Assembly (NCBI GenBank): GCA_027491415.1 | Contig: JAOZFH010000020.1 | Location: forward strand, 1-40,147 | Reading direction: 5' to 3' | Origin: Thermoproteota archaeon | Lineage (GTDB): Archaea > Korarchaeota > Korarchaeia > Korarchaeales > Korarchaeaceae | DNA: 40,147 bases | Shown here: positions 15,679 through 38,547 of the stretch, in pieces | Layout: each line of letters opens with the position of its first letter | Position numbering within the stretch: position 1 is the first letter of the stretch | The notes under the pieces: model-generated | Told to the model about the DNA's origin: nothing | The model's database searches: none | The model's input: the letters and a program-made list of their open reading frames with translations, nothing else | Made by a program: the position numbers and the translations under genes

Positions 15679-15683
15679 GGTTC

Positions 15684-15709
15684 GCCGCCCGGCCGCGCGG
15701 CCGGGCGGC
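15684..15709. terminator. 26-bp perfect GC palindrome after the 14317 gene
   Basis: Starting 6 nt after the stop codon, a perfect palindrome with 13-bp arms (GCCGCCCGGCCGC and its complement) would form a very stable hairpin. It is probably a 3'-end stabiliser or terminator; no T run follows closely. Confidence 0.5.
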
Positions 15710-23325: not shown

Positions 23326-23643
23326 CCGTCGATTCGGGGCCTCCCCCGGTATTTAAGTTGGGGCTGGGACACCCTCTCGGGTCGGTCGAGGGGGACCGGG
23401 GGGCCGCCGGCTCGGGCGGCGGCCGCGAGACTCGGCCCATCTAGATTCGCCCGAATATTCAGATCCGAGCGGGCTGGGCCGACCCGGCCATCGGACCCCG
23501 CACGAGTTCGCCGCTGGCCGGGCCACAGCGCCCTATCGTGAGGCCCGGGTCGCGAGCTCTCACCTCTTCGAAGTCCCAACGCCCCCGCCGGCCTCCTGGA
23601 CGGAGGCCGGCGGCCGTTCAGGTCTCCCCGGCGTTCCTCAGGG
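23326..23643. other. Intergenic region with terminator-like inverted repeat
   Basis: No gene is seen. CCGCCGGCCTCC at 23585-23596 pairs perfectly with GGAGGCCGGCGG at 23602-23613 across a 5-nt loop. This lies 30 nt beyond the end of the leftward repressor-peptidase operon and is probably its terminator. A second, shorter repeat (GGCCGCC / GGCGGCC) is at 23402-23424. Confidence 0.5.
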
Positions 23644-24453
23644 TCACCCCTCCGCCGGCAGCGGCGGCGCGGATTTCGGGGCGGGCGCCCCCTCCCCGGC
23701 GGACCTCCTCGCCATCTCGATGAGCCTGGCCACCCTCTCCTCCACGCCGGGGTGCCAGGAGAACGCCCTCCTCAAGGATCCAAGCCTGCCCCTCCTGTCA
23801 GACGCGGCCAGGAGGAGGCTCTTCACCGTCCACCTTACCGCCCTGGGCGACTCCGGCAGCCCTCCCCTGTAGGCCATGGCCACCTTGACGAGGGCGCTCG
23901 CCAGGTCCAAGGGCCTCCCCGAGGCCATCGCCCCCTCCTCGTCCGCCCTGAACTCCAGCCACCTGCAGACCGCGGCCCCCAGGAGGGTCCCGAGGGGTAT
24001 GTTCAGCACGCCCTCAACGGCCGCGAACACCCTGAGGAGGGGGTGCCTTCCAGCCACGTGGGCCACCTCGTGGGCCAGAACGGCACGGATCTCGTCGGGC
24101 GTGAGGAGCCTCAGCATCCCCCCAGTCACCAGGACTAGGTACTTGCCCGGGCCCAGGAAGAGCGTCAGTGAGTTCGGCTCGTCATCCCTCAGGACGCCCA
24201 GCTCCACCTCCTGGCCCGCCCCTAGCGCCGACCTCAGGGACTCCAGCTCCCTGGAGAGGCCCTCGGGCGGGGGGTCCACGAAGTCCCTCAGCTGCCCCGA
24301 GGCCAGCCTCCCGCTCAGCACGCTCCAGGCCGCCCCAGCCGCGGCGAGCGACCCCAGGAACGCGGCTGCCCAGGCGTTCCTGAAGTATAGGGCGAGGCCG
24401 ATGGTGGCGGCCAGCGGCGAGAGGGCCGCGAGCGCCCCGAGGGCGCGGGTCAC
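23644..24453 (-). CDS. M48-type membrane metallopeptidase partner of the BlaI repressor
   Basis: 269 residues. Two membrane helices open the protein (about 5-50), then a cytosolic or surface peptidase domain with zinc motif HEVAH at 128-132 and the third ligand in EFRADEEGA (Glu167, Asp171). A possible third helix covers 150-163. The order matches HtpX-like M48 peptidases. The start overlaps the BlaI stop by 4 nt (GTGA), so the two are co-translated. BlaI repressors are classically paired with a membrane metallopeptidase of family M56 (BlaR1/MecR1). Here an M48-like enzyme takes that place, so it may cleave the repressor when an inducer or membrane stress is sensed (inference). Confidence 0.85.
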   Translation of the reverse strand: MTRALGALAALSPLAATIGLALYFRNAWAAAFLGSLAAAGAAWSVLSGRLASGQLRDFVDPPPEGLSRELESLRSALGAGQEVELGVLRDDEPNSLTLFLGPGKYLVLVTGGMLRLLTPDEIRAVLAHEVAHVAGRHPLLRVFAAVEGVLNIPLGTLLGAAVCRWLEFRADEEGAMASGRPLDLASALVKVAMAYRGGLPESPRAVRWTVKSLLLAASDRRGRLGSLRRAFSWHPGVEERVARLIEMARRSAGEGAPAPKSAPPLPAEG

Positions 24454-24860
24454 CCTCGACTGCCCTCCCCCACGGAGGACCTCTCCGCCTCTATCCTCCT
24501 GAGGATCTCTCTGAGCTCCTCTGGGCTGAGGTGAACGGCTCCCTCCTCTATTAGCTTGACCAGACCGGGCCTTCCGAGCGTGTTCACCACTCTCTTGATC
24601 GCGTCCCGGGCCACGCTCCTCTCGTACTCCTCCCTGCTGACCCTGGGCCTGTAGACGTAGTACACCCCTCCCCTGCCGGTCCTGAACTCCCGCTCCACGA
24701 GTCCCTTCCCGTGAAGTCTGGAGAGCACGGTGCCGACGGTCGTGAGCGAGAGAGGCCTCTCCCGGCTCAGCTCCTCGAAGACCTCCCTGACGGTCGCCGA
24801 CCCCCTCTTGAACAGGACGTCCATGACCCTGGGCTCGAGCGGCTCCCTCCTCCTCGGCAA
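24450..24860 (-). CDS. BlaI/MecI-family winged-helix repressor
   Basis: 136 residues. The DNA-binding half is LEPRVMDVLFKRGSATVREV, with SLTTVGTVLSRLHGKGLVER and GGVYYVYRP, the canonical BlaI helix-turn-helix and wing. The C-terminal half (SREEYERSVARDAIKRVVN and LSPEELREILRRI) is the dimerisation part. TTG start with GGGGGTAGG upstream. The family binds palindromes of the TACA-n-TGTA type. Such palindromes lie in its own promoter and before the peptide genes at 28.7 kb, which supports it as regulator of the whole 24-35 kb locus. Confidence 0.92.
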   Translation of the reverse strand: MPRRREPLEPRVMDVLFKRGSATVREVFEELSRERPLSLTTVGTVLSRLHGKGLVEREFRTGRGGVYYVYRPRVSREEYERSVARDAIKRVVNTLGRPGLVKLIEEGAVHLSPEELREILRRIEAERSSVGEGSRG

Positions 24861-24871
24861 CCTACCCCCAT

Positions 24872-24924
24872 CTACGACATGATGTAAGGACGTTTAAATA
24901 TTTCCCCGCTTCTACATTGTGTAG
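24872..24924. promoter_or_regulatory. Divergent promoter with two BlaI-type operators
   Basis: A shared AT core GTTTAAATATTT at 24892-24903 serves both directions. CTACGACATGATGTAA (24872-24887) covers the repressor transcription start. CTACATTGTGTAG (24912-24924), a perfect 5-bp inverted repeat with 3-nt spacer, covers the rightward start. Both have TAC/GTA half sites as used by BlaI/MecI proteins. Confidence 0.65.
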
Positions 24925-24946
24925 TTTATTCCGCGGGGTGGTGGTG

Positions 24947-25141
24947 GTGAGCTTAGCCGAGGTGGTCAGGCTCCTGCTCCCCGTGATAGCCCTCCAAGTC
25001 GCGCTTCAAGTCTACAGCCTCTATCTGATCGTCAGGCGGTCCGAGTGGGGTCTCGGGACGAAGGTGAAGTGGTCCGTGGTCGTCATCGCCTTGGGGGTCC
25101 TCGGTGTCTTGGCGTTCCTGTTCCTGGGGAGGAGGCGGTGA
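24947..25141 (+). CDS. Small two-helix membrane protein, PLDc_N-like
   Basis: 64 residues from GTG 24947, chosen because GGGGTGG lies about 5 nt upstream and the frame before it runs through the operator. Two membrane helices (about 6-26 and 38-58) are separated by IVRRSEWGLGTKVKWS, and it ends LGRRR. This resembles the short PLDc_N family that often stands beside bacteriocin-type ABC exporters; some such short proteins are thought to give immunity. First gene of the rightward operon, 1 nt before the ATPase. Confidence 0.7.
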   Translation: MSLAEVVRLLLPVIALQVALQVYSLYLIVRRSEWGLGTKVKWSVVVIALGVLGVLAFLFLGRRR

Positions 25142-26113
25142 ATGGACGGGGGCGTCCTGGTGGAGGGTCTCGTTAAGGTCTACGGGGAGATAGAGGCCGT
25201 GAGGGACGTCTCCTTCGACGTCGAACCGGGGGAGGTGATGGGGCTACTCGGCCCCAACGGGGCCGGCAAGACCACCACCATGAGGGTACTCGCCTCCGTC
25301 ATCAGGCCAACGGCCGGCAGGGCCATAGTGAACGGGGCGGACGTTGTCAGGGAGAGGGACAGGGTCAGGAGGTCGGTGGGCTATCTCCCCGAGAGGTCGG
25401 GCCTGCCCGCGAGGATGACCGGCGAGAGGTACCTGACGATGTTCGCGAGGCTGCACGGCCTGGCGGACCCGGAGGGCAGGGCCAGGGAGGTGGCCAGGGA
25501 GCTCGGCATCTCCGACAGGTTGGGCTCCAAGTTGGGATCCCTCTCGAAGGGTCTAAAGAGGAGGGTGGCCATAGCCAGGGCCCTCGTCCACGACCCGCCC
25601 GTCCTGCTCCTGGACGAGCCCACGTCCGGCCTGGACCCAATCAGCAGGGCCCAGGTGCTGGACCTCATAGCCCGGCAGGCTGCGGAGGGGAAGGCGGTCC
25701 TGGTCTCATCCCACGTCCTGTCGGAGATGGAGAGGATCTGCACGAGGGTATGCCTCATCTCCCGGGGCAGGGTGCTCGCGCGGGGACCCCTCGACGAGGT
25801 TAGGTCCTCGGCCGGGAGGCCGGTGCTCAGGCTCAGGGCGCGGATGGCGGGAGACCTAGTTCCGCTCCTGGAGGCCGCCCTGCGGGAAGCCAGGCTCGCG
25901 GTCAGGCTAAGGGACCTGAACGGGGTCGTCGAGGTGGATCCGATAGGGGGGCCCGGCGACCTGCGGTCGGCGGCCGCGGTCGTCCTGAGGCGCCTCTTGG
26001 ATGAGGGGGTGGTGCCGGACCTGTTCGAGATCCACAGGCCGACGCTGGAGGAGGCGTTCGTGGCGCTCGTGGGGGGAGCGGCCCGTGCGGGGGATCTGGG
26101 CGCTGCTGGGTGA
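25142..26113 (+). CDS. ABC transporter ATPase 1
   Basis: 323 residues. Walker A is GPNGAGKTTTM, the signature is LSKGLKRR, Walker B is PVLLLDEPTSGLDP and the switch is SSHVL. The C-terminal ~100 residues form the extra domain of ABC-2/CcmA-type exporter ATPases. It should drive the permease encoded by the next, overlapping gene. A 73-nt stretch around Walker B (25566-25638) is base-identical to the second ATPase. Exported substrate inferred to be the modified peptides. Confidence 0.95.
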   Translation: MDGGVLVEGLVKVYGEIEAVRDVSFDVEPGEVMGLLGPNGAGKTTTMRVLASVIRPTAGRAIVNGADVVRERDRVRRSVGYLPERSGLPARMTGERYLTMFARLHGLADPEGRAREVARELGISDRLGSKLGSLSKGLKRRVAIARALVHDPPVLLLDEPTSGLDPISRAQVLDLIARQAAEGKAVLVSSHVLSEMERICTRVCLISRGRVLARGPLDEVRSSAGRPVLRLRARMAGDLVPLLEAALREARLAVRLRDLNGVVEVDPIGGPGDLRSAAAVVLRRLLDEGVVPDLFEIHRPTLEEAFVALVGGAARAGDLGAAG

Positions 26114-26837
26114 GGAGCTGAGGCTCTCGGCACAGAGGGCCGTCTGGACCGCCGCGGCCCTCTCCTTCTTCGGGATGGCCGGGGTTGCCGCACTGAAGAT
26201 GCTGCCCGAGCTGCTACCGGAGGGGGCCGTCCTTCCCGTTGAGATGACGGCCTCCGAGGCCGTCAGGGGCTACGTGAGGACCCTCTACCAGATAGGGTCC
26301 CTGGTGTCGGTCATGCTCGGGATGGACGTAGTCTCGGGGGAGGTGGAGGGTGGGACCCTTGAGCCGCTCCTCTCCGCGCCCGTGTCGGTGGGGTCCGTCT
26401 TCCTCGCCAAGCTGGCGGCCAGGCTGGCCGCCCTGGCCGCCGGGGTCGCGGCCTCCGCCGCGGTCACGTGGTGCTACGCCGTCAGCGTCTTCGGCCCCAC
26501 GGACCTGGCGAGGACCCTGGCGGCGTCGGCCTACGCCCTCCTACCCATCTCCTCGGGGGCGCTCTGCGCGGCGGGCGCCAGCGCCCTCTGTCGATCCCAG
26601 TCCTCCAGCGCCCTCCTCGGCGCAGCCGCCACCCTGGGGCTATTCGCCGCCTCCAGGGTCGGCCCCCGCTGGTTGACCCCCTTCGGTCGGGCGGAGCTGG
26701 CCTACGAGATCCTGGACGGCGGGCTGGGCGGCCTGGCCCGGCCAATCGTCGAGACCTCGCTCGCCCTGCTGATCCTCCTCGCCGCCGACCTGGCGGCGCT
26801 CCTGGCGGCCGAGAGGATGGAGAGGTGGTGGGGATGA
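26085..26837 (+). CDS. ABC-2 type permease 1
   Basis: 250 residues from GTG 26085, which has GGGGGGAG just upstream and overlaps the ATPase gene by 29 nt. About six membrane helices. The block MDVVSGEVEGGTLEPLLSAPVSV is the ABC-2 permease landmark (related to GERExGTLEpLLaaPvs). It should pair with ATPase 1 to export a peptide or lipid-like substrate. Confidence 0.9.
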   Translation: MRGIWALLGEELRLSAQRAVWTAAALSFFGMAGVAALKMLPELLPEGAVLPVEMTASEAVRGYVRTLYQIGSLVSVMLGMDVVSGEVEGGTLEPLLSAPVSVGSVFLAKLAARLAALAAGVAASAAVTWCYAVSVFGPTDLARTLAASAYALLPISSGALCAAGASALCRSQSSSALLGAAATLGLFAASRVGPRWLTPFGRAELAYEILDGGLGGLARPIVETSLALLILLAADLAALLAAERMERWWG

Positions 26838-27850
26838 TTGAGGTTAGCGGGCTCGTCAAGAGGTACGGCTCCGTCACGGCCATCGAGGGCGTGACCTTCT
26901 CGGTGGGGTCGGGGGAGGTGTTCGGCCTCCTCGGCCCCAACGGGGCCGGCAAGACCACCACCATGAGGATAATCTGCTGCGTGATACCCCCTGACGCGGG
27001 GTCCGTCGTCGTGGCGGGAGTAGACGCCCTTAGGGACCCGTCGAGGGCCAAGCAGTCCATCGGATACCTGCCCGAGGTCCCGTCGGTCTACAGCCGGCTT
27101 ACCGTCAGGGAGAACCTCGAGTTCTTCGCCAGGCTGTACGGGGTACCCGGCGGAGAGGCTGAGCCGAGGGTCTCTCGGCTCCTGAGGTTCTTCTCGCTGG
27201 AGGAAAGGGCGGATCAGCTGGCCTCGAGGCTGTCCAAGGGGCTGAGGCAGAGGCTGGCCATAGCCAGGGCCCTCGTCCACGACCCGCCCGTCCTGCTCCT
27301 GGACGAGCCCACGTCCGGCCTGGACCCGATAAGCGCCAGGGAGGTCAGGGACCTGGTGGTGAGGGTGGCCAGGGAGGAGGGGAAGACCGTCCTCCTCTCC
27401 ACTCACAACCTATTCGAGGCGGAGCAGGTCTGCGACAGGGTCGCGATAATAAGGAGGACGATCCTCGCCGTGGGGAGGCCGAGGGAACTCGCCGAGAGGG
27501 CCTCGATTAGGGTCCCGGTGAGGGTGGCCCTGGCCAACCCCTCGGAGGGGCTGGTGAGGGTGGCCCTCTCGGTCCAGGGGGTGACCTCCGCCAAGCTGGA
27601 GTCCGGAGAGCTCGTCGCGGAGCTTGAGGGGGATCCGGACTCGGTGGTGCCCGAGCTCAGCGCGGCCCTGGTCGCGGCGGGAGCCAAGATACTGTCGATC
27701 CGCCGAACCTCGTCGCTGGAGGAGGCGTTCATCTCGGTCGTCCGGGGCGGGCCGCGGGTGAGGTCCCGATCCGTCGGTGGTGGGGGGCGGGGCCCAGACG
27801 TGAACACGGGGACGGCCGAGATGTCTGGGGAGGGGGTGGTGCGGGCGTGA
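26834..27850 (+). CDS. ABC transporter ATPase 2
   Basis: 338 residues from ATG 26834, overlapping permease 1 by 4 nt. Walker A GPNGAGKTTTM, signature LSKGLRQR, Walker B PVLLLDEPTSGLDP and STHNLFEAEQV are intact. A C-terminal tail of about 30 Gly/Arg-rich residues is extra. It is paralogous to ATPase 1, and two blocks are identical at the DNA level, so the pair arose by tandem duplication with later homogenisation or strong constraint. Confidence 0.95.
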   Translation: MIEVSGLVKRYGSVTAIEGVTFSVGSGEVFGLLGPNGAGKTTTMRIICCVIPPDAGSVVVAGVDALRDPSRAKQSIGYLPEVPSVYSRLTVRENLEFFARLYGVPGGEAEPRVSRLLRFFSLEERADQLASRLSKGLRQRLAIARALVHDPPVLLLDEPTSGLDPISAREVRDLVVRVAREEGKTVLLSTHNLFEAEQVCDRVAIIRRTILAVGRPRELAERASIRVPVRVALANPSEGLVRVALSVQGVTSAKLESGELVAELEGDPDSVVPELSAALVAAGAKILSIRRTSSLEEAFISVVRGGPRVRSRSVGGGGRGPDVNTGTAEMSGEGVVRA

Positions 27851-28665
27851 TCAGGTGGTCGAGGGTTCTGTGCGTCCTGACGAAGGACTGGAGGGAGTTC
27901 TCTAGGAGCGGTTGGCTGGTCGGGACCGCCCTGGCGCTGACGGTCTACTTCGGCGTCGTCCTGCCGGCCATAATCGTGTTCGGGGCCAGGATCTCTGGCG
28001 GCGCCGTCGTCCCCATATCGATACCCGTCAGGCTCGGGGACCTGCCCCTTCCCGCGGCTCCCGAGGGGCTGGACGAGGTGGCTAGGTCTGTCTACGCGGC
28101 CTTCTCTCTGATCGTCCCCCCGCTCTTCCTGGTGATCCCCCTGGCGGTGTCGACCGTGATGGCGGCGGACAGCTTCGCCGGCGAGAGGGAGAGGGGGACT
28201 ATAGAGGTCCTCTTGGCCGCCCCGCTCACCGAGAGGGAGCTCTTCCTGGCCAAGGCCCTCGCGTCCCTGACGCCGGGTGTGGCGGCCTCCTGGGGGGCCT
28301 TCGCGCTGATGGCCCTGGCGACCAACCTGATGTCGGCTGACATGTTCGGCGGGTGGTGGTTCCCGTCCGGCCCCGAGTGGTACGTGGTCGTCGCCCTCGT
28401 GTCCCCGCTCTACGCCTTCCTCGCAATATCCCTCATAGTGCTGGCCTCCTCCAGGGCTAGGAGCGCCAGGGAGGCTCAGCAGGCGTCCGCAATACTGGTG
28501 GCGCCCATCCTGGCGGCGGTGTTCGGCCAGGTCCTCGGGGGCTTCGCGATCGGCTTGGAGCACCTCTTGATCTCAGCAGCGGTCCTGGCGGGTCTGGACG
28601 CCGGGCTCGTCGCCCTCGCGCCGGGCAGGTTCTTCTCTGGGGTGAGGTACATGAGGGTCGATTAG
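27847..28665 (+). CDS. ABC-2 type permease 2
   Basis: 272 residues, GTG start overlapping ATPase 2 by 4 nt. About six helices. The landmark DSFAGERERGTIEVLLAAPL is a perfect ABC-2 permease signature before helix 3. The first extracellular loop (about residues 45-85) is longer than in permease 1. It completes the second exporter; its end is 10 nt before the operator region of the peptide genes. Confidence 0.93.
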   Translation: MIRWSRVLCVLTKDWREFSRSGWLVGTALALTVYFGVVLPAIIVFGARISGGAVVPISIPVRLGDLPLPAAPEGLDEVARSVYAAFSLIVPPLFLVIPLAVSTVMAADSFAGERERGTIEVLLAAPLTERELFLAKALASLTPGVAASWGAFALMALATNLMSADMFGGWWFPSGPEWYVVVALVSPLYAFLAISLIVLASSRARSAREAQQASAILVAPILAAVFGQVLGGFAIGLEHLLISAAVLAGLDAGLVALAPGRFFSGVRYMRVD

Positions 28666-28674
28666 CTTGTCCAC

Positions 28675-28721
28675 TTGTAGTAGCTACTACAAATTGTAAT
28701 AATGCTTATATTATGTCGTAG
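28675..28721 (+). promoter_or_regulatory. Promoter and BlaI-type operators of the precursor-peptide genes
   Basis: TTGTAGTAGCTACTACAA at 28675-28692 is a perfect 18-bp palindrome. It overlaps TACAA-A-TTGTA at 28688-28698. A TATA-like TTATATTA at 28706-28713 follows, then ATGTCGTAG at 28713-28721, the exact complement of CTACGACAT in the repressor promoter (24872-24880). Transcription should start near 28735, just before the first peptide gene. Confidence 0.7.
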
Positions 28722-28743
28722 GTTGACCTCCCCAGGTGGGAGC

Positions 28744-28875
28744 GTGGAGGTGTCCGGGTACACTCCCCCCGCCATGCTGAACCTGACCGGGACCGGGGAT
28801 CAGGGGGTCGCCGCGGCCGTGGTCGTCGTCATAGGAATCCTCCTCATCTGGCTGGCCATCGACCTGACCCCGTGA
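28744..28875 (+). CDS. Putative RiPP precursor peptide 1 (43 aa)
   Basis: Reads VEVSGYTPPAMLNLTGTGDQ, then GVAAAVVVVIGILLIW and LAIDLTP. The leader carries Y-x-P-P-A-M and ends with DQG; the rest is hydrophobic with one Trp 30 residues after the Tyr. Start GTG 28744 follows AGGTGGG; GTG 28750 or TTG 28723 are possible. The first of five related ORFs in a row on the same strand, just downstream of the operator. Without a modifying context it would look like a single-helix membrane peptide; the following maturation genes argue for a precursor. Confidence 0.7.
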   Translation: MEVSGYTPPAMLNLTGTGDQGVAAAVVVVIGILLIWLAIDLTP

Positions 28876-28895
28876 GCCAAGCGAGGTGAGGGGAC

Positions 28896-29018
28896 TTGAG
28901 GACCTACACTCCACCAGCGCTGCTGAGCCTCTCTGGAGCGGTGGATCAGGGCGCGGTGGCGGCTGCCGTGGCCGTCATAGCGGCGGTGGCCCTGTGGCTC
29001 TGGCTCTGGGTCTACTGA
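28896..29018 (+). CDS. Putative RiPP precursor peptide 2 (40 aa)
   Basis: Reads MRTYTPPALLSLSGAVDQGA, then VAAAVAVIAAVALW and LWLWVY. TTG start with GAGGTGAG about 6 nt upstream. The leader Y-x-P-P-A-L followed by DQG aligns without gaps with peptide 1, and the Trp 30 residues after Tyr is conserved. The C-terminus alternates Trp (W-L-W-L-W-V-Y), the clearest candidate for side-chain crosslinking. Confidence 0.75.
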   Translation: MRTYTPPALLSLSGAVDQGAVAAAVAVIAAVALWLWLWVY

Positions 29019-29044
29019 TGACGCGTACACCGGGGTGAAGTCCA

Positions 29045-29173
29045 GTGAGGGCCTACTCGCCTCCGACGATGCTGAACATAACGACCTCCGCGAACGTGGG
29101 CCTCGTGACGCCCACCGTGGCGGTGATCATCCAGGCGCTGGTGTGGGTCTACGTCTGGGTCTGGGCGACCTGA
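29045..29173 (+). CDS. Putative RiPP precursor peptide 3 (42 aa)
   Basis: Reads MRAYSPPTMLNITTSANVGL, then VTPTVAVIIQALVW and VYVWVWAT. GTG start, with GGGGTGAAG upstream. It has the same Y-x-P-P-T-M leader, NVG in place of DQG, and Trp exactly 30 residues after Tyr, with alternating W/Y/W/W at the end. It does not overlap its neighbours; each peptide has its own ribosome site. Confidence 0.75.
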   Translation: MRAYSPPTMLNITTSANVGLVTPTVAVIIQALVWVYVWVWAT

Positions 29174-29188
29174 GGGAGGCTCAAACGC

Positions 29189-29332
29189 ATGGAGCGCCGC
29201 GCATACGCACCTCCCGCCATGCTCAACGCGATGTCCGACGGACGGGACCTTGGAGCAGTCATTCTCATGCCCATCCTCATAGCGATAGTGATCATCTGGG
29301 TGCTCGGGCAGGACTGGGGGGAGACCTCCTGA
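29189..29332 (+). CDS. Putative RiPP precursor peptide 4 (47 aa)
   Basis: Reads MERRAYAPPAMLNAMSDGRD, then LGAVILMPILIAIVIIW and VLGQDWGETS. ATG start, with GAGGGAGG about 12 nt upstream. Leader Y-x-P-P-A-M and DLG are conserved; the Trp falls 31 residues after Tyr. Its end differs from the others (polar, second Trp six residues later), so the family varies mainly at the C-terminus, as expected of a core peptide. Confidence 0.75.
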   Translation: MERRAYAPPAMLNAMSDGRDLGAVILMPILIAIVIIWVLGQDWGETS

Positions 29333-29355
29333 GCCCTGCCTGGGAGGTGAGGTGG

Positions 29356-29485
29356 GTGGAGAGGAAGTACGTCCCTCCGGCCCTCATGTCCATTAATGGA
29401 GGAGAAGGCGAAGACGGTCGTGATAGTGGCCCTGCTGGTCTGGCTCTGGGTCAAGGTCTTCGACCCCAAGGCGGCGGGAGTCTGA
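29356..29485 (+). pseudogene. Putative RiPP precursor peptide 5, frameshifted
   Basis: GTG 29356, after GAGGTGAGG, reads VERKYVPPALMSIN with the same leader motif. The frame then leaves the expected hydrophobic part. One base later, from ATG 29396, the other frame reads MEEKAKTVVIVALLVWLWVK and ends VFDPKAAGV at 29483-29485. Removing one A from ATTAATGG would join them. Either a real frameshift, a consensus error, or two very short ORFs. The [DN]-x-G turn is missing, and the spacing from Tyr to the first Trp is about six residues shorter than in the other peptides. Confidence 0.6.
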
Positions 29486-29504
29486 TCCCTCGGGGGGCCC
29501 GGCC

Positions 29505-30934
29505 TTGGCCCTGGAGCCACGGACTCCAGTGCGGCTTAGAAACCCCAAGAGGCTTCGCAAAGAGGCTTTCGGCGGCCTCTACATGGACCTCCCCCACTCT
29601 CTTTTTTTGATATTTAACGAGACGGGTTATCTGATCCTGAGGGAGGTCTCGGGGGGCTCCACTCCCGAGCAGGTCGCGGCCGCCCTGGCCGCCAGGTTCC
29701 CCCAGGAGGACCCGGACCTCATAATGGGGTCGGTAATCCGGTTCCTCGAGCAGGCCGCTGCGGCCGGCCTGGTGACGTTGGGGGACTCCCCCGAGACTCT
29801 TGGCGGCGCCGGACCCGCACCCGGCTCGATCGAACCAGCGCAGGCAGAAGGGGGCAGAGAGGGCCCCTCAGAGTACGCCAAGTCGATCCTCGATTCGCCC
29901 TACGTGCTGGGCGTCGAGCCGAACGTGCTGTCGGCCCCTCTCAAGGTCCTGATAGAGGTGACGAGGAGGTGCAACCTCAGGTGCCTCCACTGCTACGCGC
30001 GGAGCGGAGACACGGGCTCCGAGGAGATGGAGACCGAGGAGATGAAGTCCCTGCTCGAGGATCTGGTGGACTCGGGGGTCAACTACTTCGTCATATCCGG
30101 TGGGGAGCCTCTTGTCAGGAAGGACCTGTTTGAGCTCCTGGAGCACGTGGCGAGGCTCGGGGCTGAGGCGTCCCTGCTGACCAACGCCACCCTCATCGAC
30201 AGGGAGAGGGCGGCCCGGCTCAGGGACCTCGGGGTGCTGAAGGTGGAGGCCAACCTGGACTCCGCCAGGCCGGAGGTCTACGACAGGTTCCGGGGCGTTC
30301 CAGGCGCCTTCGAGATGACCGTCAGGGGAGTGAGGGCGCTGGTGGAGGAGGGCGTTCCCACGAGGCTGAACGTGACGGTGACGCGCATGAACGTGGGAGA
30401 GCTGGAGGACATCGTGGAGGCTGCCGTGGAACTCGGGGTGAGGGAGGTCGCCTTCGTCGAGCTAAAGCCCTCGGGCAGGGGGCTGGACAACTACTCGAAG
30501 CTCGCCCTCGGCCCGGAAGAGAGGGCGGAGGTGGGCAGGAGGCTGAGGGAACTCTCCAAGAGGTCAGGGGGAGGGCCCTGATCCTTGGCGGGAGCAGGGA
30601 GGACCTGGACATGGTCGACCCACACGGCGTCCTCCCGCTGTGCGGGGCCGGCAAGCTCCACTGCTCCATCACGCCGTGGGGCGACGTCAAGCCATGCGCC
30701 TTCCTCCCAGACGACCCCGCCTGCATCGCCGGCAGCGTCAGGGAGAGGAGCCTGCTGGAGATCTGGCAGAACTCCCCCCTGTTCAGCGCCTTCAGGAGGC
30801 TCGGGAATCCGATCTGCGAGGCCTGCGGCGACGCCAGGTGCGCGGGCGGGTGCAGGGTCCGGGTCTACGCCGCCACGGGATCGCTGGGTGGGGCCCCCGA
30901 CCCGAAGTGCTCCAGACTTGCCCCGGCGGGGTGA
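29505..30934 (+). pseudogene. RRE (PqqD-like) - radical SAM - SPASM peptide maturase, one-base frameshift
   Basis: The first frame (29505-30581) has a PqqD-like RRE domain at about residues 10-92. The radical SAM motif CNLRCLHC follows (Cys156, Cys160, Cys163), then ISGGEPLVRKD. It stops at 30579-30581. The second frame carries ALILGGSREDLDMVDPHG, then the SPASM cysteines (LHCSITPWGDVKPC and ICEACGDARCAGGC plus PKC). A run of five G at 30567-30571 with one G added would join SGGRALILGG exactly. Joined, the protein is about 476 residues. The family installs crosslinks or other carbon-centred changes on precursor peptides bound by the RRE. The start may instead be GTG 29529. Function depends on whether the frameshift is real, programmed or an error. 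Confidence 0.85.
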
Positions 30935-30941
30935 TGTGGAG

Positions 30942-31478
30942 ATGGAGGTAGAGGGGCTGTCCTACCCGCCTTCCGGCGAGGTGAGGGTTAGGAGGCTCTC
31001 GGAGGAGGACGACCTAACCCCTGCCTTCAGGCTGATGATGTCCCTCGACTACGGGGTCCCGGAAGAGGCGGTGACCGCGCTCTTCCCGTCGCCCAGCGCG
31101 GTTCAGGCCAGGGTGAAGATGGGCCTGGTCTCGGTGTACGTGGCCGAGGCGGACGGCGACGGGGAGCCCGTTGGCGTGGCGGTCGTCATCTCGACCCCCC
31201 AGTCGTACAACAGAGACCAGAGGGTCGTGGCCCTCGTAGGCGTCAGGCCCGGTCACAGGAGGAGGGGGGTAGGGACCACCCTCCTGAGGGCCGTGATCGA
31301 AGACTCGAGGAGGGAGGGGGTGAAGAAGCTGGTGGCGCAGGTCCCGGTTCAGAACAAGGCCTCAGCCGCCCTGTTCCTGAAGAACGACTTCAGGTTCGAG
31401 TCCTACCTGAGGGACGCCTACGGCATGGGCAGGGACTCCTACGTCATGGCCCTGAGGCTGGGAGGTGACGGCGCTTGA
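30942..31478 (+). CDS. GNAT N-acetyltransferase
   Basis: 178 residues from ATG 30942 (GTG 30936 also possible). The acetyl-CoA site reads VVALVGVRPGHRRRGVGTTL (Q/RxxGxG/A type loop), followed by the helix LLRAVIEDSRREGVKK and the strand VAQVPVQNKASAALFLKNDF, a standard GNAT motif B. Placed between the two radical SAM genes and overlapping the second by 4 nt, it belongs to the locus. A role in acetylating the finished peptide (self-protection or N-capping) is an inference. Confidence 0.88.
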   Translation: MEVEGLSYPPSGEVRVRRLSEEDDLTPAFRLMMSLDYGVPEEAVTALFPSPSAVQARVKMGLVSVYVAEADGDGEPVGVAVVISTPQSYNRDQRVVALVGVRPGHRRRGVGTTLLRAVIEDSRREGVKKLVAQVPVQNKASAALFLKNDFRFESYLRDAYGMGRDSYVMALRLGGDGA

Positions 31479-32560
31479 CGGCGGAGCCCCAGTTCACCCT
31501 CGACCTCTACTCCCCGGACTTCAGCTTCTTCAAGGCGGTCCCGAGGGGGGAGGCCGAGGCCCTCTTGAGGGAGTGGAGGGGCCTGCAGGTCCTCCCGAGG
31601 CGCCTCAGGTCTCCTCTATTTGTGCTCTGGGAGACGACCTACCGCTGCAATCTGAACTGCTCTTTCTGCTACAACAGGTCCCCCCGAAGGGTGAGTGAGC
31701 TCACCTCCAGGGAGGCCATGTCCCTCATTTCCGAGCTGGCGGACACGCTCAGGCCGTTCAGCGTCTGCGTGAGTGGGGGGGAGCCCACGCTCCGCCCCGA
31801 CTACCTGAAGATCCTCGCGTCCCTCCACGCCGCCGGGATCACCGTGGCCACCATAACCAACGGCTGGACCATGAGCGAGGAGCTCGCCTCCGGGATAGCG
31901 AGCCACGCACACACGGCCCAGGTGAGCCTGGACGGCCCCAGGCCCGAGGTCCACGACGCGATCAGGGGGAGGAGGGGGGCGTTCGAGAGGGCCTTGAACG
32001 CCCTCAGGCTCCTGAGGGGGGCTGGAATAGCCGAGCTCTCCCTCTCCTTCGTGGCGACGAGGGAGAACATACGAGACTTCCCGGACATGGTGGACCTGGC
32101 CAGGAGGTACGAGGTCGACCGGCTCAGGGTCCAGCCGGTGGTCCCCACGGGGCGGGGCGACCTGGAGTCGGTACCCACCCCCGAGCAGCTGAGGTGGCTC
32201 GAGGGGTTCCTCGAGCGCGAGGTCGAGGGGGCGGCCGAGGAGGGGCTGAGGATAGAGTACGGCGACCCCGCCCACCACATAAGGGCCGGCCTGCTGATCG
32301 GCCTCACCCTCGCCATGAACATCACGGCGGACGGGCACGTGGGATTCACCCCATACTTCCCGTTCTCGTGCGGGAACGTCAGGAGGCATCCAATCCACTG
32401 GATATGGACCGAGAGGGTCTCGAAGGCCTGGAGGCACCCGGTGGTGAGGTCCGAGCTCTCAAAGGTGAGGACGGTCTACGACTTCTACAAGGTCTCGGGG
32501 GCGAGCAGCAGGGAGCCCGTCCCCCTCGACGGCTGGGATGAGGTGGGCCTGGGGGAGTGA
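31475..32560 (+). CDS. Radical SAM peptide-maturase-like protein without SPASM cysteines
   Basis: 361 residues, TTG start overlapping the GNAT gene. The motif CNLNCSFC (Cys58, Cys62, Cys65) and SGGEPTLRPDY (101-111) are intact, with ITNGWTMSEEL and VSLDGPRPEVHDAIRG typical of the MoaA/PqqE-like branch. The C-terminal region, where a SPASM domain would be, holds a single Cys (FSCGNVRRHP), so no auxiliary clusters are expected. It has no fused RRE; the stand-alone RRE encoded next could serve it. A second, different modification of the peptide is the likeliest role. Confidence 0.88.
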   Translation: MTAEPQFTLDLYSPDFSFFKAVPRGEAEALLREWRGLQVLPRRLRSPLFVLWETTYRCNLNCSFCYNRSPRRVSELTSREAMSLISELADTLRPFSVCVSGGEPTLRPDYLKILASLHAAGITVATITNGWTMSEELASGIASHAHTAQVSLDGPRPEVHDAIRGRRGAFERALNALRLLRGAGIAELSLSFVATRENIRDFPDMVDLARRYEVDRLRVQPVVPTGRGDLESVPTPEQLRWLEGFLEREVEGAAEEGLRIEYGDPAHHIRAGLLIGLTLAMNITADGHVGFTPYFPFSCGNVRRHPIHWIWTERVSKAWRHPVVRSELSKVRTVYDFYKVSGASSREPVPLDGWDEVGLGE

Positions 32561-32573
32561 GGGGGTGTTGCCG

Positions 32574-32882
32574 GTGAGGAGCGTGGAGGTATCGGACGAC
32601 GCCGTGCCGGTCAGGGAGCCCGTGTCTTGGAGGTGGGACGGCGAGACTATGGAGCACATCGTCCTCTCCGTCCCCAAGACCAAGAACATCTACATACTCA
32701 ACCCGACGGCCGCCCTCGTGTTCTACCTATGCAACGGCCACAACACGGTATCTGATATAGCCGAGACCGTCGCGAAGAGGTTCGGGGCCGACTACCGGGT
32801 GGTCGTCAGACACGTCAGGGACTTCGTGGGGAGGCTGGTCGAGATGGGCGTGGTCTCACTCCATGGAGAGGGGGATGTGTGA
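32574..32882 (+). CDS. Stand-alone PqqD-like RRE protein
   Basis: About 102 residues. IYILNPTAALVFYLCNGHNT followed by VSDIAETVAKRFG and VRHVRDFVGRLVEMGVV is the PqqD winged-helix pattern. The family binds the leader of RiPP precursors and presents them to the modifying enzyme. GTG 32574 is chosen for its G-rich ribosome site about 7 nt upstream; GTG 32565 or ATG 32538 are alternatives. It overlaps the tldD-like gene by 4 nt (GTGA), so it is co-translated with the protease. Confidence 0.85.
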   Translation: MRSVEVSDDAVPVREPVSWRWDGETMEHIVLSVPKTKNIYILNPTAALVFYLCNGHNTVSDIAETVAKRFGADYRVVVRHVRDFVGRLVEMGVVSLHGEGDV

Positions 32883-34267
32883 GCAAACCCGTTGCCGCCC
32901 GCTCCTGCCGGGGGTCACCCATGGCGGGCGCCTCCCTCGCAGCCTTGGGCGAGGCCGCAGACCTCGTCTCCAGGGCCATCAGAGAGTCCGACTTTGCCGA
33001 GCTGGTGTCGGTCAGGGAGGAGACCCTCAGGATCTCTTCTGCCCCCGACGGATCCATTTTGGAGGATCTCTCGGTGAGGGAGCGCATCCTCGTGAAGGCG
33101 CGGGTGCGCGGCTCCTGGCTCTCGGCCACGCTCCCAGCCTCCACCCTCCCCGGGCTCCTAGAGTCTCTGAGTGAGGCGACGCCCTCCGCAGAGGCTGAGA
33201 GACTCATACTCCCTCGAATGGGTCGGGGTGTCGAGTTCGGCAACTTCTCACCGGAGGAGGATGCGGGCTACCTCTGGGAGGTCGTGACGGCTCTGGCAGG
33301 CGGGCCGGACAGCCTATCGGCCTCGTGCACGCTGAGGTCCATATCCGTCAGGAACTCCCTGGGGGTGGGGGCGGAGACCTCGGAGATCGAGACAGCGGTG
33401 GTGGCCTTCTGGCACTCCAGTGAGAACTGGTTCAGGCCGGCCGACGAGGAGGTTCTGGGCGGCTGGGCCAGGCCGAGGGACCTGGTCCGGAGCCTCGTCG
33501 AGGGTGCCGAGTCGGTCAGGTCTGCGCGGGAGGAGGGTCGAGGGGGCCTCAGGATCGTGGATCCCCCGAGGGGCGCCCCCATCGCGCTGGCCCCGAGGGC
33601 GGCCGGCACCCTCGTGCACGAACTCCTCCAACACGGGCTCGAGGGAGACGCGGTCGCGGGGGGGAGGTCTTACCTGTCGGGCATGCTGGGGGGGAGGGTG
33701 GCCCCCGAGCTGCTCACCGTGCGCTCCGGGCCCCCCCACCCGGGCTGGAGGGTCGATCACGAGGGCGTGGCCGTCGAAGAGGCGAAGCTCGTCTCCGAGG
33801 GGGTGGTCACCTCCTACCTGACCGACGTGGAGTCGGCGATCCGCCTAGGCCTGCCCCCCATCGGGTGCGGGAGGTCGGCGGGCGACGACCCACCGTCCCC
33901 GAGGGCCACGGCCCTCTCGGTGGAGCCGGTAGACGGAGGGCCGGACCTGGATGAGATGGCCTCCGAGTTCGAGACGCTCCTGCTGGTCGACAGGGCCTCA
34001 GGGGGCTCCACAGATCCTTCGAGCGGCGAGTTCAGGATCTCAGCCCCGTCTGCCCTTGTGCTCAGACGGGGTTATCCCACGGGTGTGACCCCCGCCATCT
34101 GGCTGGAGGGGAGCTGCGCCTCGGTCCTCAGGGGGCTCTTGGGCCTGGGCGGCCGCTCTGAGGAGTTCGTTACCCTATGCGCCAAGGGAGGAGGGACCGT
34201 GCTCACCAGGATCTCCAGCCCGCCCGCCGCGATCTCTGGGGAGGTGGTGCGGGTCGTCCTCGCCTGA
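32879..34267 (+). CDS. TldD-like metalloprotease subunit
   Basis: 462 residues. The zinc motif HELLQHGLEGD matches the TldD signature HExxxHxxxxD (His247, Glu248, His252, Asp257). The third ligand region is VTLCAKGG (Cys434). TldD is the catalytic half of the TldD/TldE protease, known to trim linear leader fragments in microcin B17 maturation. It lies next to a TldE-like gene, so a dimer is expected that removes leaders from the modified peptides (inference). GTG start. The N-terminal 20 residues before the first helix are atypical. Confidence 0.92.
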   Translation: MSKPVAARSCRGSPMAGASLAALGEAADLVSRAIRESDFAELVSVREETLRISSAPDGSILEDLSVRERILVKARVRGSWLSATLPASTLPGLLESLSEATPSAEAERLILPRMGRGVEFGNFSPEEDAGYLWEVVTALAGGPDSLSASCTLRSISVRNSLGVGAETSEIETAVVAFWHSSENWFRPADEEVLGGWARPRDLVRSLVEGAESVRSAREEGRGGLRIVDPPRGAPIALAPRAAGTLVHELLQHGLEGDAVAGGRSYLSGMLGGRVAPELLTVRSGPPHPGWRVDHEGVAVEEAKLVSEGVVTSYLTDVESAIRLGLPPIGCGRSAGDDPPSPRATALSVEPVDGGPDLDEMASEFETLLLVDRASGGSTDPSSGEFRISAPSALVLRRGYPTGVTPAIWLEGSCASVLRGLLGLGGRSEEFVTLCAKGGGTVLTRISSPPAAISGEVVRVVLA

Positions 34268-34310
34268 CTCGGCCCTCAATAAGGGAGAGCGAGAGCACCC
34301 CGGAGACCTT

Positions 34311-35606
34311 CTGGACGGGCTCACTGGGCTGGTCGAGAGGGCCGTCGAGATCGCCCTAGGGTCGGGCGCCGAGGCCGCCGAGTGCTTCGCTGAGAGGAGG
34401 CTGGAGTCCCTGTACAGGCCGGGCCGCCCGCCGAGGCTGAGGGTCAGAGAGGGCCTCTCCCTCAGGGTGATCTTCGGGGGGAGGGTGCACTTCGCCTCCG
34501 CCTCCCTGGGGGGCTCCGACTCGGACAGCCTGACCCGGGTCCGCCGGGCCCTGGAGTACGCGGCCTCAGCGGGGACGAGGGGAGGGCGAGAGTGGCCCAG
34601 GGAGTTCTCCCCGATGTCCGGGAGCCTCCCGAGCGTGAGGACCGCGGACCCAGCCATACTGGACGCCTCGGCGGGCGAGGGGGGCACCGCCCTGGACGAG
34701 CTGGCTTCCAGACTTGGCGGCGGGGGCGAGGGGCCGACCCTGCTGGCCTCCTCCCGCGAGGTGGCCCTGGCCACGGACGCCGGGCCGATCCTGGCGGAGG
34801 TGAGGACCAGGTCCCTGGCACTGATCCACCTGGAGTCCCGGGGGCGGGCGGCCACCCTGGTCAGGGACGGGTGGAGCCTCTCAAATCTGTTGAAGGGGAT
34901 CGACGACCTGTCTCGGGAGCTCGAGGAGGTCGGAAGGGCGGAGTGGAGGCCGGCGGCCGTCTGGAGGTCGAGCCCCCGTCGGATCGTCCTCACCCCCTAC
35001 GCCCTGACCGGCCTGAGGGACCTCCTCTACCCAGTGCTCGACCCCGACCTGTCCCCGAGGTTAGACGTGCCCATCTGCGAAGTGAGGCTCGCCGAGGGGC
35101 TCTCCTTGGTCGACGACCCTGCATATCCGGGTGGCGTCCGGAGGGCGTTCGACGACGAGGGCACGCCCTCGACCCCCGTGAAGGTCCTCGACCACCGCGG
35201 CGCGAGGCAGCTCCTCACGCTGGCCAAGGCCCAGGCGAGGTCTGCCCGACCCACGGGGAGCTCAGTCAGACCGACCTACTCATCGAGGCCCTTGGCATTC
35301 CCATCCAACCTGGTCCTCACGTCGTCGGGCCGAGAGGACCCCGTGGAGCCTGAGACCGGCGCCCCGAGGCTCAGGGTCTTGGAGGGGGCCGCGGTCGGCG
35401 GGGTGGAGGCCGGGAGGCTGGAGGTGGGCGTGACGCTGGCCGTCCTCGAGGGGGAGCAGGAGACGCTGGTCGGGGGGTTCAAGCTCGTCTCGAGCTTCAG
35501 AGAGTTCTTCTCAGAGGTTCGTCCGGTGGGGCGGGAAGTGGTGGGCTGCTACGGCTTCTACTCCCCAGAGCTCGCGGTCCCGGCGCGGGCGGTCAGGCTG
35601 GAGTGA
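34311..35606 (+). CDS. TldE/PmbA-like protease subunit, 5' end unclear
   Basis: The frame reads GLVERAVEIALGSGAEAAEC and continues FAERRLESLYRPGRPPRLRV into LRVIFGGRVHFASASLGG, which aligns with the N-terminal domain of PmbA/TldE. That domain starts well before the only standard start in frame, GTG 34467. Upstream of it no ATG, GTG or TTG exists in frame; CTG codons at 34311 and 34329 are the candidates, or an indel hides the real start. The given start is therefore provisional. No HExxxH motif, as expected of the non-catalytic TldE partner. C-terminal blocks EGAAVGGVEAGRLEVGVTLA and GGFKLVSSFREFFSEVRPVG fit the family. Confidence 0.82.
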   Translation: MDGLTGLVERAVEIALGSGAEAAECFAERRLESLYRPGRPPRLRVREGLSLRVIFGGRVHFASASLGGSDSDSLTRVRRALEYAASAGTRGGREWPREFSPMSGSLPSVRTADPAILDASAGEGGTALDELASRLGGGGEGPTLLASSREVALATDAGPILAEVRTRSLALIHLESRGRAATLVRDGWSLSNLLKGIDDLSRELEEVGRAEWRPAAVWRSSPRRIVLTPYALTGLRDLLYPVLDPDLSPRLDVPICEVRLAEGLSLVDDPAYPGGVRRAFDDEGTPSTPVKVLDHRGARQLLTLAKAQARSARPTGSSVRPTYSSRPLAFPSNLVLTSSGREDPVEPETGAPRLRVLEGAAVGGVEAGRLEVGVTLAVLEGEQETLVGGFKLVSSFREFFSEVRPVGREVVGCYGFYSPELAVPARAVRLE

Positions 35607-36038
35607 GCACGCCCGGTCTCCGCCGGTCGATCTTCTCCCCCCGGCTGGCTGCTCCGCTGGTGATCCTTGGCAGCCGCCTGAAAGAGACCTCGTGTCCCCC
35701 CTTCGGGGAGGGCTGACCACCCGCGGGAAGCCCTCCACTCTGGCTGATCGCTCCTACTCGGTCAACGCCGGTCCTCGACGCCCAGAGCGCGTCCCGTCCC
35801 CGGAGGGCCCGCACCTGCCCGAACCTCGATCTTCGCGCGGTCGGGTCGATGCACGACGGGAGGACCGTCAGGGCTGCGAACCACGCGCCCCCAGACGAGG
35901 GCGATTCCGGGGCTTGAGGGCGCCGGCCGCCTGCAGGCGGCCGGTTGGGGAGCGACCACGCCTCTCCCTCGCCGAGGGAGGGGCCCCTGGACGCGCTGCC
36001 CCGAAAAGCGGGGGCCGGGGGAGACTCATTTGCCGCGC
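35607..36038. other. Intergenic region with 22-bp palindrome
   Basis: No supported gene. CCGGCCGCCTG at 35923-35933 and CAGGCGGCCGG at 35934-35944 form a perfect 22-bp palindrome. It lies between the rightward peptide locus and the leftward 36039 gene and may terminate either. Many short overlapping frames here have no ribosome site. Confidence 0.5.
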
Positions 36039-36411: not shown

Positions 36412-37138
36412 GTTTCAACCCTGCCGCAAGACAAGAAAAGAAAGGGCCAATCTAATTCTTTAAAGGAATTTCCGGCCTCGTCGTTGCAAGAGGAACCTTC
36501 AACCCCGCCGCATTAGGCGGCAAATCTGCTTCTGGCCGCGGCCTGGGCCGGGTACAGGCCGAGGTCGAGCTTTCAACCCTGCCGCAAGAAGCGGCCAATC
36601 TGCTTCCCCGCTCGTCGCTCAGGAGTCTGGCGGGTTCCAGCGGGCTCTTTCAACCCTGCCGCAAGAAGCGGCCAATCTGCTTCGTGTGGGCAATAACGGG
36701 CTTCCTGTTCGGGCACGAGGTCGCTTTCAACCCTGCCGCAAGAAGCGGCCAATCTGCTTCGTCCGTGGGAGGACACAAAGAACACGGAGGGTTGAAAACT
36801 TTCAACCCTGCCGCAAGAAGCGGCCAATCTGCTTCCTGTAGGGCACGGTAGTAGTAGCGTAAAGCCTCGTAGATCTTTCAACCCTGCCGCAAGAAGCGGC
36901 CAATCTGCTTCGCGCAAGACTGCACCACGGCAGCGGAAGCATCGTGCAGCACTTTCAACCCTGCCGCAAGAAGCGGCCAATCTGCTTCGTACGCTCAGGC
37001 GGCCCAGGAGTGGGAGAGATACTACCTTTCAACCCTGCCGCAAGAAGCGGCCAATCTGCTTCACGCGATCCACGTGAACCGCTTCAGCTCTTCCACATTC
37101 TCTTTCAACCCTGCCGCAAGAAGCGGCCAATCTGCTTC
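36412..37138 (-). CRISPR. CRISPR array: 8 perfect and 2 degenerate 37-nt repeats, read leftward
   Basis: Perfect repeats start at 36570, 36647, 36724, 36799, 36875, 36952, 37026 and 37102, each 37 nt. Spacers between them are 37-40 nt. On the transcribed (minus) strand the repeat begins GAAGCAGATTGGCCGCTTCT and ends TGCGGCAGGGTTGAAAG. It contains a 5-bp stem GCCGC/GCGGC with loop TTCTT and ends GTTGAAAG, the usual 8-nt crRNA handle. A variant repeat at 36496-36532 keeps the stem but has a changed loop. A further one at about 36412-36458 is split by a short insertion. Degenerate copies at the left end mark the old, leader-distal side, so the leader is on the right. The likely processing enzyme is Cas6 at 5.1-6.0 kb. 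Confidence 0.97.
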
Positions 37139-38368: not shown

Positions 38369-38392
38369 CGCCGCGCCCGCCCTCGGCCTGAT

Positions 38393-38399
38393 AAAACGC
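38393..38399 (-). promoter_or_regulatory. TATA box of the CARF-membrane gene
   Basis: Minus-strand GTTTTATC, about 25-30 nt before the ATG, is the only AT-rich island in this GC-rich gap. Confidence 0.55.
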
Positions 38400-38547
38400 G
38401 ATCGGGTCGACCTTTCACCCGCCCCCGGTTCGGTGAAAAATCCCGCGGCGCGCCTTTTACCGACGACCCTGCCGGCGGCCTGAGGGGTCCCGAGTTGAGC
38501 GCGTCCGTGTTGGGGCCCGAGCGACGCCACCGTCCACCTCCCTCACC

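What the first reader, a model, noticed from the sequence alone, without database searches (positions are those of the whole stretch)
23644..35606. Apparently undescribed archaeal RiPP locus with two exporters, two radical SAM maturases, RREs, GNAT and TldD/TldE
Twelve genes, four of them overlapping their neighbour by about 4 nt, plus a divergent repressor-peptidase pair, surround five short related ORFs. Seen directly: the domain motifs of each enzyme, the ORF family, shared operators. Known from families: PqqD-like RREs bind precursor leaders, radical SAM-SPASM proteins modify them, TldD/TldE trims leaders, ABC-2 exporters secrete. Inferred: one pathway makes several membrane-active or signalling peptides. 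I know of no named RiPP class with this gene set and these precursors.
Basis: partly seen in the sequence, partly recalled or inferred. Interest (0 to 1): 0.93.

Follow-up and report, generated by a model that had tools for sequence, protein, structure and literature searches.

The report
Orphan archaeal modified-peptide (RiPP) gene cluster
An archaeon carries a gene cluster that looks built to make, chemically modify and release five short greasy peptides, and a sister species has lost exactly the production genes while keeping the pumps and their regulator, which fits the pattern of a toxin maker beside a resistant non-maker.

Summary
Window 23644-35606 carries an M48 peptidase/BlaI pair, two ABC-2 exporter pairs, a cassette of short related ORFs, two radical SAM proteins, two PqqD-type recognition domains (RREs), a GNAT and a TldD/TldE pair. 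The ORFs share Y[TSAV]PP[AT][ML], close to the published YxxPx[L/V/I/F/A] motif read by PqqD/lasso-type RREs. The free RRE's predicted fold is closest in the PDB to lasso RREs solved with their leader peptides. The precursor and exporter promoters share two operator types.

New facts. (1) A same-genus genome, about 97% identical here, keeps the peptidase, repressor and both exporters intact but lacks all precursors and maturases, with TldE scraps marking the deletion. (2) In four genomes of a related genus the repressor/peptidase/ABC module with the same operator stands alone, so the exporters are more likely a stress or immunity module than simply 'the secretion part'. (3) No homologue of the precursors turned up in 393 other archaeal genomes, and none of rSAM2 or TldD at the thresholds used. 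(4) Radical SAM 1 and ORF5 are frame-broken here, so production may already be failing.

Best reading: a new RiPP family, probably bacteriocin-like. The chemistry is unknown; aromatic cross-links are my leading guess.

The parts
23644..24453 (-). M48-type zinc peptidase with membrane segments; probable sensor/protease partner of the repressor (BlaR/MecR-like logic)
   Evidence: Pfam Peptidase_M48 1.1e-15; 4-nt overlap with the repressor gene; same pair conserved in L078-L081
24450..24860 (-). BlaI/MecI-family repressor
   Evidence: Pfam Penicillinase_R 2.3e-21; 57% identical orthologues in 4 genomes
24872..24888 (+). operator type B, CTACGACATGATGTAAG
   Evidence: only two matches in the window, 0.07 expected
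24913..24923 (.). operator type A, TACATTGTGTA, beside an archaeal-type TATA box (TTTAAATA)
   Evidence: same site at the ATPase promoter of L078-L081
24947..25141 (+). small PLDc_N-like membrane protein
   Evidence: Pfam PLDc_N 5.7e-5
25142..26113 (+). ABC ATPase 1
   Evidence: Pfam ABC_tran 2.3e-32
26085..26837 (+). ABC-2 permease 1 (start codon not certain)
   Evidence: Pfam ABC2_membrane_2 2.5e-10
26834..27850 (+). ABC ATPase 2, the pair found alone in related genomes
   Evidence: Pfam ABC_tran 2.1e-31; 49% orthologues next to BlaI in L078-L081
27847..28665 (+). ABC-2 permease 2
   Evidence: Pfam ABC2_membrane_2 5.8e-14; 50-54% orthologues in 4 genomes
28688..28698 (.). operator type A, TACAAATTGTA, at the precursor promoter
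28705..28721 (-). operator type B, CTACGACATAATATAAG, overlapping the likely TATA box of the precursor operon
28750..28875 (+). precursor ORF1: MSGYTPPAMLNLTGTGDQGVAAAVVVVIGILLIWLAIDLTP
28896..29018 (+). precursor ORF2: MRTYTPPALLSLSGAVDQGAVAAAVAVIAAVALWLWLWVY
29045..29173 (+). precursor ORF3: MRAYSPPTMLNITTSANVGLVTPTVAVIIQALVWVYVWVWAT
29189..29332 (+). precursor ORF4: MERRAYAPPAMLNAMSDGRDLGAVILMPILIAIVIIWVLGQDWGETS
29356..29485 (+). precursor ORF5, frame-broken near 29395: MERKYVPPALMSI / MEEKAKTVVIVALLVWLWVKVFDPKAAGV
   Evidence: tail recognised weakly by the precursor profile (0.047)
29505..30934 (+). radical SAM maturase 1 with N-terminal PqqD/RRE and C-terminal SPASM domain; frame break near 30575 separates the SPASM domain
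   Evidence: Pfam PqqD 2e-9, Radical_SAM 1.1e-30, SPASM 4.6e-11 in the other frame; cysteines
30942..31478 (+). GNAT acetyltransferase
   Evidence: Pfam Acetyltransf_1 8.3e-14
31475..32560 (+). radical SAM maturase 2, CxxxCxxC present, SPASM cysteines absent
   Evidence: Pfam Radical_SAM 2e-26; best NCBIfam model mycofactocin maturase, below cut-off; cysteine list
32538..32882 (+). free RRE (PqqD family)
   Evidence: Pfam PqqD 2.7e-11; Foldseek best matches TbiB1-leader, lasso B1-leader and PqqD
32879..34267 (+). TldD metallopeptidase with HELLQH and CAKGGG sites
   Evidence: Pfam PmbA_TldD_3rd 2e-34; aligned to E. coli TldD 5nj5
34296..35606 (+). TldE partner, no HExxxH; start codon unresolved
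   Evidence: Pfam PmbA_TldD_3rd 1.5e-11; remnants in sister genome

Best explanation
This is a RiPP gene cluster of a previously unseen family, most likely making bacteriocin-like peptides, joined to a BlaI/M48-controlled ABC-2 self-protection module. Steps: (1) the BlaI-type repressor sits on two operator types in both promoters and is released when its M48 peptidase partner senses stress (operators shown; binding and sensing inferred from BlaR/MecR logic). (2) Up to five short precursors are made, each with an N-terminal Y-x-P-P-x-[ML] leader motif and a hydrophobic C-terminal core, Trp/Tyr-rich in three of them (sequence shown; translation inferred). (3) The free RRE and the RRE of rSAM1 bind the YxxP motif (inferred from family, predicted fold and motif). 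(4) rSAM1 (SPASM) and rSAM2 modify the core. No precursor contains Cys, so sacti/ranthi thioethers are excluded; C-C or C-O cross-links between alternating aromatic residues (W-x-W-x-W/K/Y) are my leading guess, epimerisation second (inferred). (5) TldD/TldE chews the leader from the N-terminus until the modified part blocks it, and the GNAT may cap the new N-terminus (inferred from known TldD/E behaviour). (6) The ABC-2 pumps protect the producer from, or export, the membrane-seeking product (inferred). In the sister species the producer genes are gone and the regulator and pumps remain (shown), which would be a resistant non-producer (inferred).
For: Domains. Precursor family and codon pattern. 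Leader motif resembles YxxPx[L/V/I/F/A] read by PqqD/lasso-type RREs (PMC13381572; PMC12710340). Predicted fold of the RRE: the five best PDB matches of 350,542 chains are TbiB1-leader, lasso B1-leader and PqqD, E about 0.03 (model confidence modest, pLDDT 61). TldD aligns with E. coli TldD across HExxxH and Cys. Shared operators. Producer block lost as a unit with TldE scraps left, exporters intact with dN/dS 0.31. BlaI/M48/ABC module with the same operator but no RiPP genes in four genomes. TldD/E 'pencil sharpener' (PMC10885120).
Against: No product, expression or chemistry is known. No second copy of the producer block was found, so conservation of the operon across species could not be used. 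rSAM1 and ORF5 are frame-broken. TldE lacks a normal start codon. The aromatic tail could simply be the interface belt of a membrane helix. The dN/dS value includes time before the deletion, so it does not prove selection on the pumps afterwards. The sister-species reading rests on one genome.
Confidence: 0.8

Rival explanations
1. The short ORFs are unmodified small membrane proteins (for example leaderless bacteriocins or transporter subunits), and the maturases act on something else.
For: Each ORF has a 17-residue stretch with mean hydropathy 2.1-3.2, like a membrane helix; they follow two ABC-2 pairs.
Against: They are directly followed by an RRE-rSAM fusion, share an RRE-type YxxP motif, and were lost together with the maturases in the sister genome.
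Confidence: 0.12
2. A PQQ/mycofactocin-like cofactor pathway in which the peptide is a scaffold for one small redox cofactor.
For: rSAM2's best NCBIfam model is the mycofactocin maturase (136 bits, cut-off 265); PqqD-family RREs; TldD/E is known from peptide-scaffold pathways (PMC10885120).
Against: Up to five precursors with different C-termini do not fit one small product; models are far below cut-off; the pumps and repressor have no obvious place in such a pathway.
Confidence: 0.06
3. A degenerating RiPP cluster: once functional, now losing production in this genome, as already happened in the sister species. (This can be true together with the best explanation.)
For: rSAM1 and ORF5 frame breaks within about 1.2 kb and no standard TldE start, against very few frame-breaking indels in the aligned coding sequence of the two genomes elsewhere on this contig; deletion in G001.
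Against: ORF1-4, GNAT, rSAM2, RRE and TldD are intact; a single-base assembly error or programmed frameshift is not excluded.
Confidence: 0.3
4. The two ABC-2 pairs are dedicated peptide exporters, rather than a self-protection module.
For: They sit immediately upstream of the precursors under shared operators.
Against: The regulator plus one ABC pair occurs without RiPP genes in four genomes and persists without them in the sister species.
Confidence: 0.35

Closest known systems
Lasso peptides and linear polyphosphorylated peptides (discrete PqqD-type RRE, YxxP leader)
   Same: Leader motif like YxxPx[L/...] and RRE family; predicted RRE fold matches TbiB1 and a lasso B1 bound to leader
   Different: No lasso cyclase, leader peptidase B2, kinase or SpI-type peptidase here; radical SAM enzymes and TldD/E instead
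Daropeptides/darobactin (DarE radical SAM)
   Same: SPASM radical SAM; ORF5 tail W-L-W-V-K-V-F has the W-x-W-x-K-x-F spacing of darobactin WNWSKSF; one daropeptide cluster carries a putative N-acetyltransferase (PMC9055067)
   Different: Only ORF5 (frame-broken) matches that spacing; two radical SAM proteins, RREs, five precursors; relation of rSAM1/2 to DarE not tested
Epipeptide EPE/YydF of Bacillus subtilis
   Same: Radical SAM-modified membrane-active peptide with a membrane protease and an ABC transporter postulated to give immunity (PMC7026026)
   Different: No RRE/TldD/E/GNAT there by my knowledge; different precursor
Mycofactocin and PQQ pathways
   Same: PqqD-type RRE plus radical SAM; TIGR03962 is the best model for rSAM2
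   Different: Single precursor, cofactor product; scores far below cut-offs
Microcin B17 and other TldD/E-processed RiPPs
   Same: TldD/TldE heterodimer trims leaders (PMC10885120)
   Different: TldD/E often encoded outside the cluster; azole chemistry; here a divergent pair inside the cluster (two other TldD/E pairs elsewhere in the genome)
Archaeal lanthipeptides of haloarchaea
   Same: Archaeal RiPPs with antagonistic activity (PMC10105419)
   Different: Class II lanthipeptide (LanM) chemistry with Cys-containing cores; unrelated

Membership tests
RiPP biosynthetic cluster (general) | gene(s) for a short precursor with conserved leader and variable core beside modifying enzymes | tested here: met
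RiPP biosynthetic cluster (general) | RRE or other leader-binding domain | tested here: met
   PqqD in two proteins, fold match
RiPP biosynthetic cluster (general) | precursor is translated and modified | not testable with these tools
   needs expression or mass spectrometry
Lasso peptide | YxxPxL-type leader motif and discrete RRE | tested here: met
   motif from PMC13381572 (Met for Leu in three of five)
Lasso peptide | asparagine-synthetase-like cyclase and transglutaminase-like B2 protease | tested here: not met
   none among the genes of the locus
Sactipeptide/ranthipeptide | Cys residues in the core for thioether bonds | tested here: not met
   no Cys in any precursor
Daropeptide/triceptide | SPASM radical SAM enzyme | tested here: met
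   rSAM1 SPASM 4.6e-11 but in a different frame; rSAM2 lacks SPASM cysteines
Daropeptide/triceptide | aromatic-x-x cross-link motif in the core | tested here: inconclusive
   ORF2, ORF3, ORF5 have alternating aromatics; ORF1 and ORF4 have one or two Trp
Daropeptide/triceptide | maturase homologous to DarE or a cyclophane synthase | not tested
   no DarE sequence was at hand; best PDB relatives are PqqE, SkfB and BlsE-type enzymes
Mycofactocin/PQQ | score above curated cut-off of pathway maturase or PqqD model | tested here: not met
   136 vs 265 bits; 30 vs 46 bits
TldD/TldE (M103) | HExxxH and C-terminal Cys zinc site in TldD, none in TldE | tested here: met
BlaI/MecI regulon | TACA-N3-TGTA type operators at controlled promoters | tested here: met
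   operator type recalled from BlaI/MecI literature; binding itself not tested

The most novel reading that the evidence does not exclude
A new archaeal RiPP class: YxxP-led, Cys-free, Trp/Tyr-rich hydrophobic peptides cross-linked by two radical SAM enzymes and trimmed by a dedicated TldD/E, used as an archaeal bacteriocin, with a natural resistant non-producer sister species that kept only the immunity pumps and their regulator.
Probability: 0.3. Interest if true: 0.8.

Novelty: new variant of a known kind. Interest (0 to 1): 0.62.

Why it matters
Archaeal RiPPs are little explored, and in the open papers I searched the well-documented archaeal cases are haloarchaeal lanthipeptides (PMC10105419). 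This cluster joins a lasso-type leader/RRE code to radical SAM and TldD/E chemistry. It offers a natural comparison between a producer locus and a 97%-identical sister locus that lost exactly the producer block. It also defines a small BlaI/M48 operator-and-pump module in at least six archaeal genomes that can be tested as a self-protection system.

Tried and rejected
Precursor profile in the phylum, in 393 other archaeal genomes and in viral contigs: no homologue; the weak hits L046, L057 and L059, which contain YxPP strings, were inspected and look like chance reads without maturase context. rSAM2 and TldD in 394 archaeal genomes: no orthologue at the thresholds used (1e-38 and 1e-30; one rSAM2 hit, G036, is a generic SPASM protein). 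rSAM1: generic SPASM proteins in G036 and G325 without RRE or RiPP neighbours; GTDB contig scan with rSAM1 gave five distant bacterial radical SAM proteins (exact 8-residue patterns, so only close relatives could be found). Viral contigs with rSAM2: none. Plasmids with TldD: only ordinary TldD. Other TldD/E pairs of the genome are not beside RiPP-like genes. A -1 slippery heptamer at the rSAM1 break was looked for by eye and none fits well. AlphaFold on rSAM2 alone was too poor to use (pLDDT 46). Contamination of the contig considered and rejected: GC matches other contigs and neighbouring genes align at about 94-97.5% to the same-genus genome.
Full report
Setting. The window is a whole contig (C63, 40,147 bases) of a 1.78-Mb, 63-contig genome from a small phylum with 29 species genomes held. 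A HerA-Mre11 operon and archaeal MoaA and TATA-type promoters show that it is archaeal. Contig GC (about 66%) is close to that of other contigs (63-65%), and most of 238-23025 that aligns to a same-genus genome does so at 94-97.5%, so the locus is not a contaminant.

Observation. Family searches confirm the enzymes. The precursor cassette 28750-29485 holds four intact ORFs of 40-47 residues and a fifth split over two frames. They align with invariant Y, PP, L, G, I and W, and their motif codons differ often at synonymous sites. Each has a Shine-Dalgarno-like stretch upstream. The C-terminal halves are strongly hydrophobic, and in ORF2, ORF3 and ORF5 they end in alternating aromatics (WLWLWVY, WVYVWVW, WLWVKVF). 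No precursor contains Cys.

Frame problems. rSAM1 stops at 30581 and its SPASM domain continues in another frame. ORF5 changes frame near 29395. TldE has no ATG/GTG/TTG before 34467 although homology starts earlier; CTG 34311 is possible. Aligning this contig to the sister genome shows few frame-breaking indels in genes: none in the exporter block, one at 20261, and three in a gene fragment at the edge of another deletion. The breaks in the producer block may therefore be real. I cannot separate decay, programmed frameshifting and assembly error.

Recognition code. Published work gives [Y/W]xxPx[L/V/I/F/A] as the motif bound by discrete lasso RREs and a similar motif in LPP precursors (PMC13381572), and says that W/Y/LxxP motifs are shared by FusE, McjB, PqqD and StsC type RREs (PMC12710340). 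All five ORFs fit YxxP: YTPPAM, YTPPAL, YSPPTM, YAPPAM, YVPPAL (Met at the sixth position in three). The free RRE is PqqD family by sequence (2.7e-11). Its AlphaFold model, modest in confidence, ranks TbiB1-leader, lasso B1-leader and PqqD first among 350,542 PDB chains, at E about 0.03.

Regulation. Two operator types occur at both the BlaI/exporter promoter and the precursor promoter: TACANNNTGTA (two exact sites in 40 kb) and CTACGACATRATRTAAG (two sites, 0.07 expected; the degenerate pattern was written from these two sites, so the count shows similarity rather than independent discovery). In four genomes of another genus the site at the ATPase promoter extends to CTACTACANNNTGTAGTAG or close to it. 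This ties precursor expression to the repressor.

Sister genome. In G001 the block 23632-28661 (M48, BlaI, PLDc_N, both ABC pairs) is 97.4% identical with one 3-base indel. It then jumps to 34897-35027 and 35276-35743, two scraps covering the TldE 3' part, with short microhomology at the joints. All precursors, rSAM1, GNAT, rSAM2, RRE and TldD are gone, and the precursor profile finds nothing in G001. The TldE scraps show deletion in G001 rather than gain in the window genome. The retained genes are open in G001; dN/dS for the block is 0.31, which indicates constraint but cannot date it.

Stand-alone module. Permease 2 has 50-54% orthologues in four genomes of genus g3. There they sit in an M48-BlaI/ATPase-permease module without a second ABC pair, PLDc_N protein or RiPP genes in L078, L079 and L081; L080 is a short contig that ends soon after the module. 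I therefore read the exporter/regulator part as an older self-protection or stress module that the producer block uses.

Mechanism. RRE delivery, radical SAM modification, TldD/E trimming to the first modified residue (PMC10885120) and optional acetylation are the most economical path. No Cys excludes sacti/ranthi thioethers. ORF5's W-x-W-x-K-x-F equals the darobactin spacing (PMC9055067), but this is one post-hoc match in a frame-broken ORF, so I weight cross-linking at about 0.4 and leave epimerisation (YydF-like; PMC7026026) open. rSAM2 has CxxxCxxC but only one Cys in its C-terminal part, so it lacks SPASM clusters.

Uniqueness. No homologue of the precursors and no orthologue of rSAM1, rSAM2 or TldD was found in up to 393 other archaeal genomes of about 250 genera, nor in viral contigs for rSAM2 and the precursors. 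These searches sample part of known diversity; metagenomes were not available.

Verdict. A RiPP cluster is highly likely; membership in any named class is not met; biological role is probably bacteriocin-like but unproven.

Noticed in passing
window 36483-37138: CRISPR array of about nine repeats, unit spacing 74-77 bases, consensus CTTTCAACCCTGCCGCAAGAAGCGGCCAATCTGCTTC; related repeats on other contigs of the genome (C1, C5, C46, C62).
   Followed up: partly
window 37580-40147: CARF proteins next to the array: Cas_APE2256 (6.9e-28) and a Csx1-type CARF protein (weak, just below cut-off).
   Followed up: partly
window 5141-5968 (-): Cas6 endoribonuclease (2.9e-15) about 31 kb from the array.
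   Followed up: no
L078, L079, L080, L081: Stand-alone M48-BlaI / ABC ATPase-permease module with conserved operator CTACTACANNNTGTAGTAG in four genomes of a related genus; the next genes downstream read like an FAD-oxidoreductase operon.
   Followed up: partly
window 9518-15700 against L083: G001 also lacks most of this stretch (a molybdopterin-oxidoreductase-like gene and neighbours), so this contig has a second large deletion or insertion difference.
   Followed up: no
G000:C46:3453-3465: Another exact CTACANNNTGTAG site in the genome; possibly a second BlaI-type regulon.
   Followed up: no
window 20033-20753: HEPN-like and nucleotidyltransferase (MNT)-like gene pair, a possible toxin-antitoxin module, judged by eye from the sequence only.
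   Followed up: no
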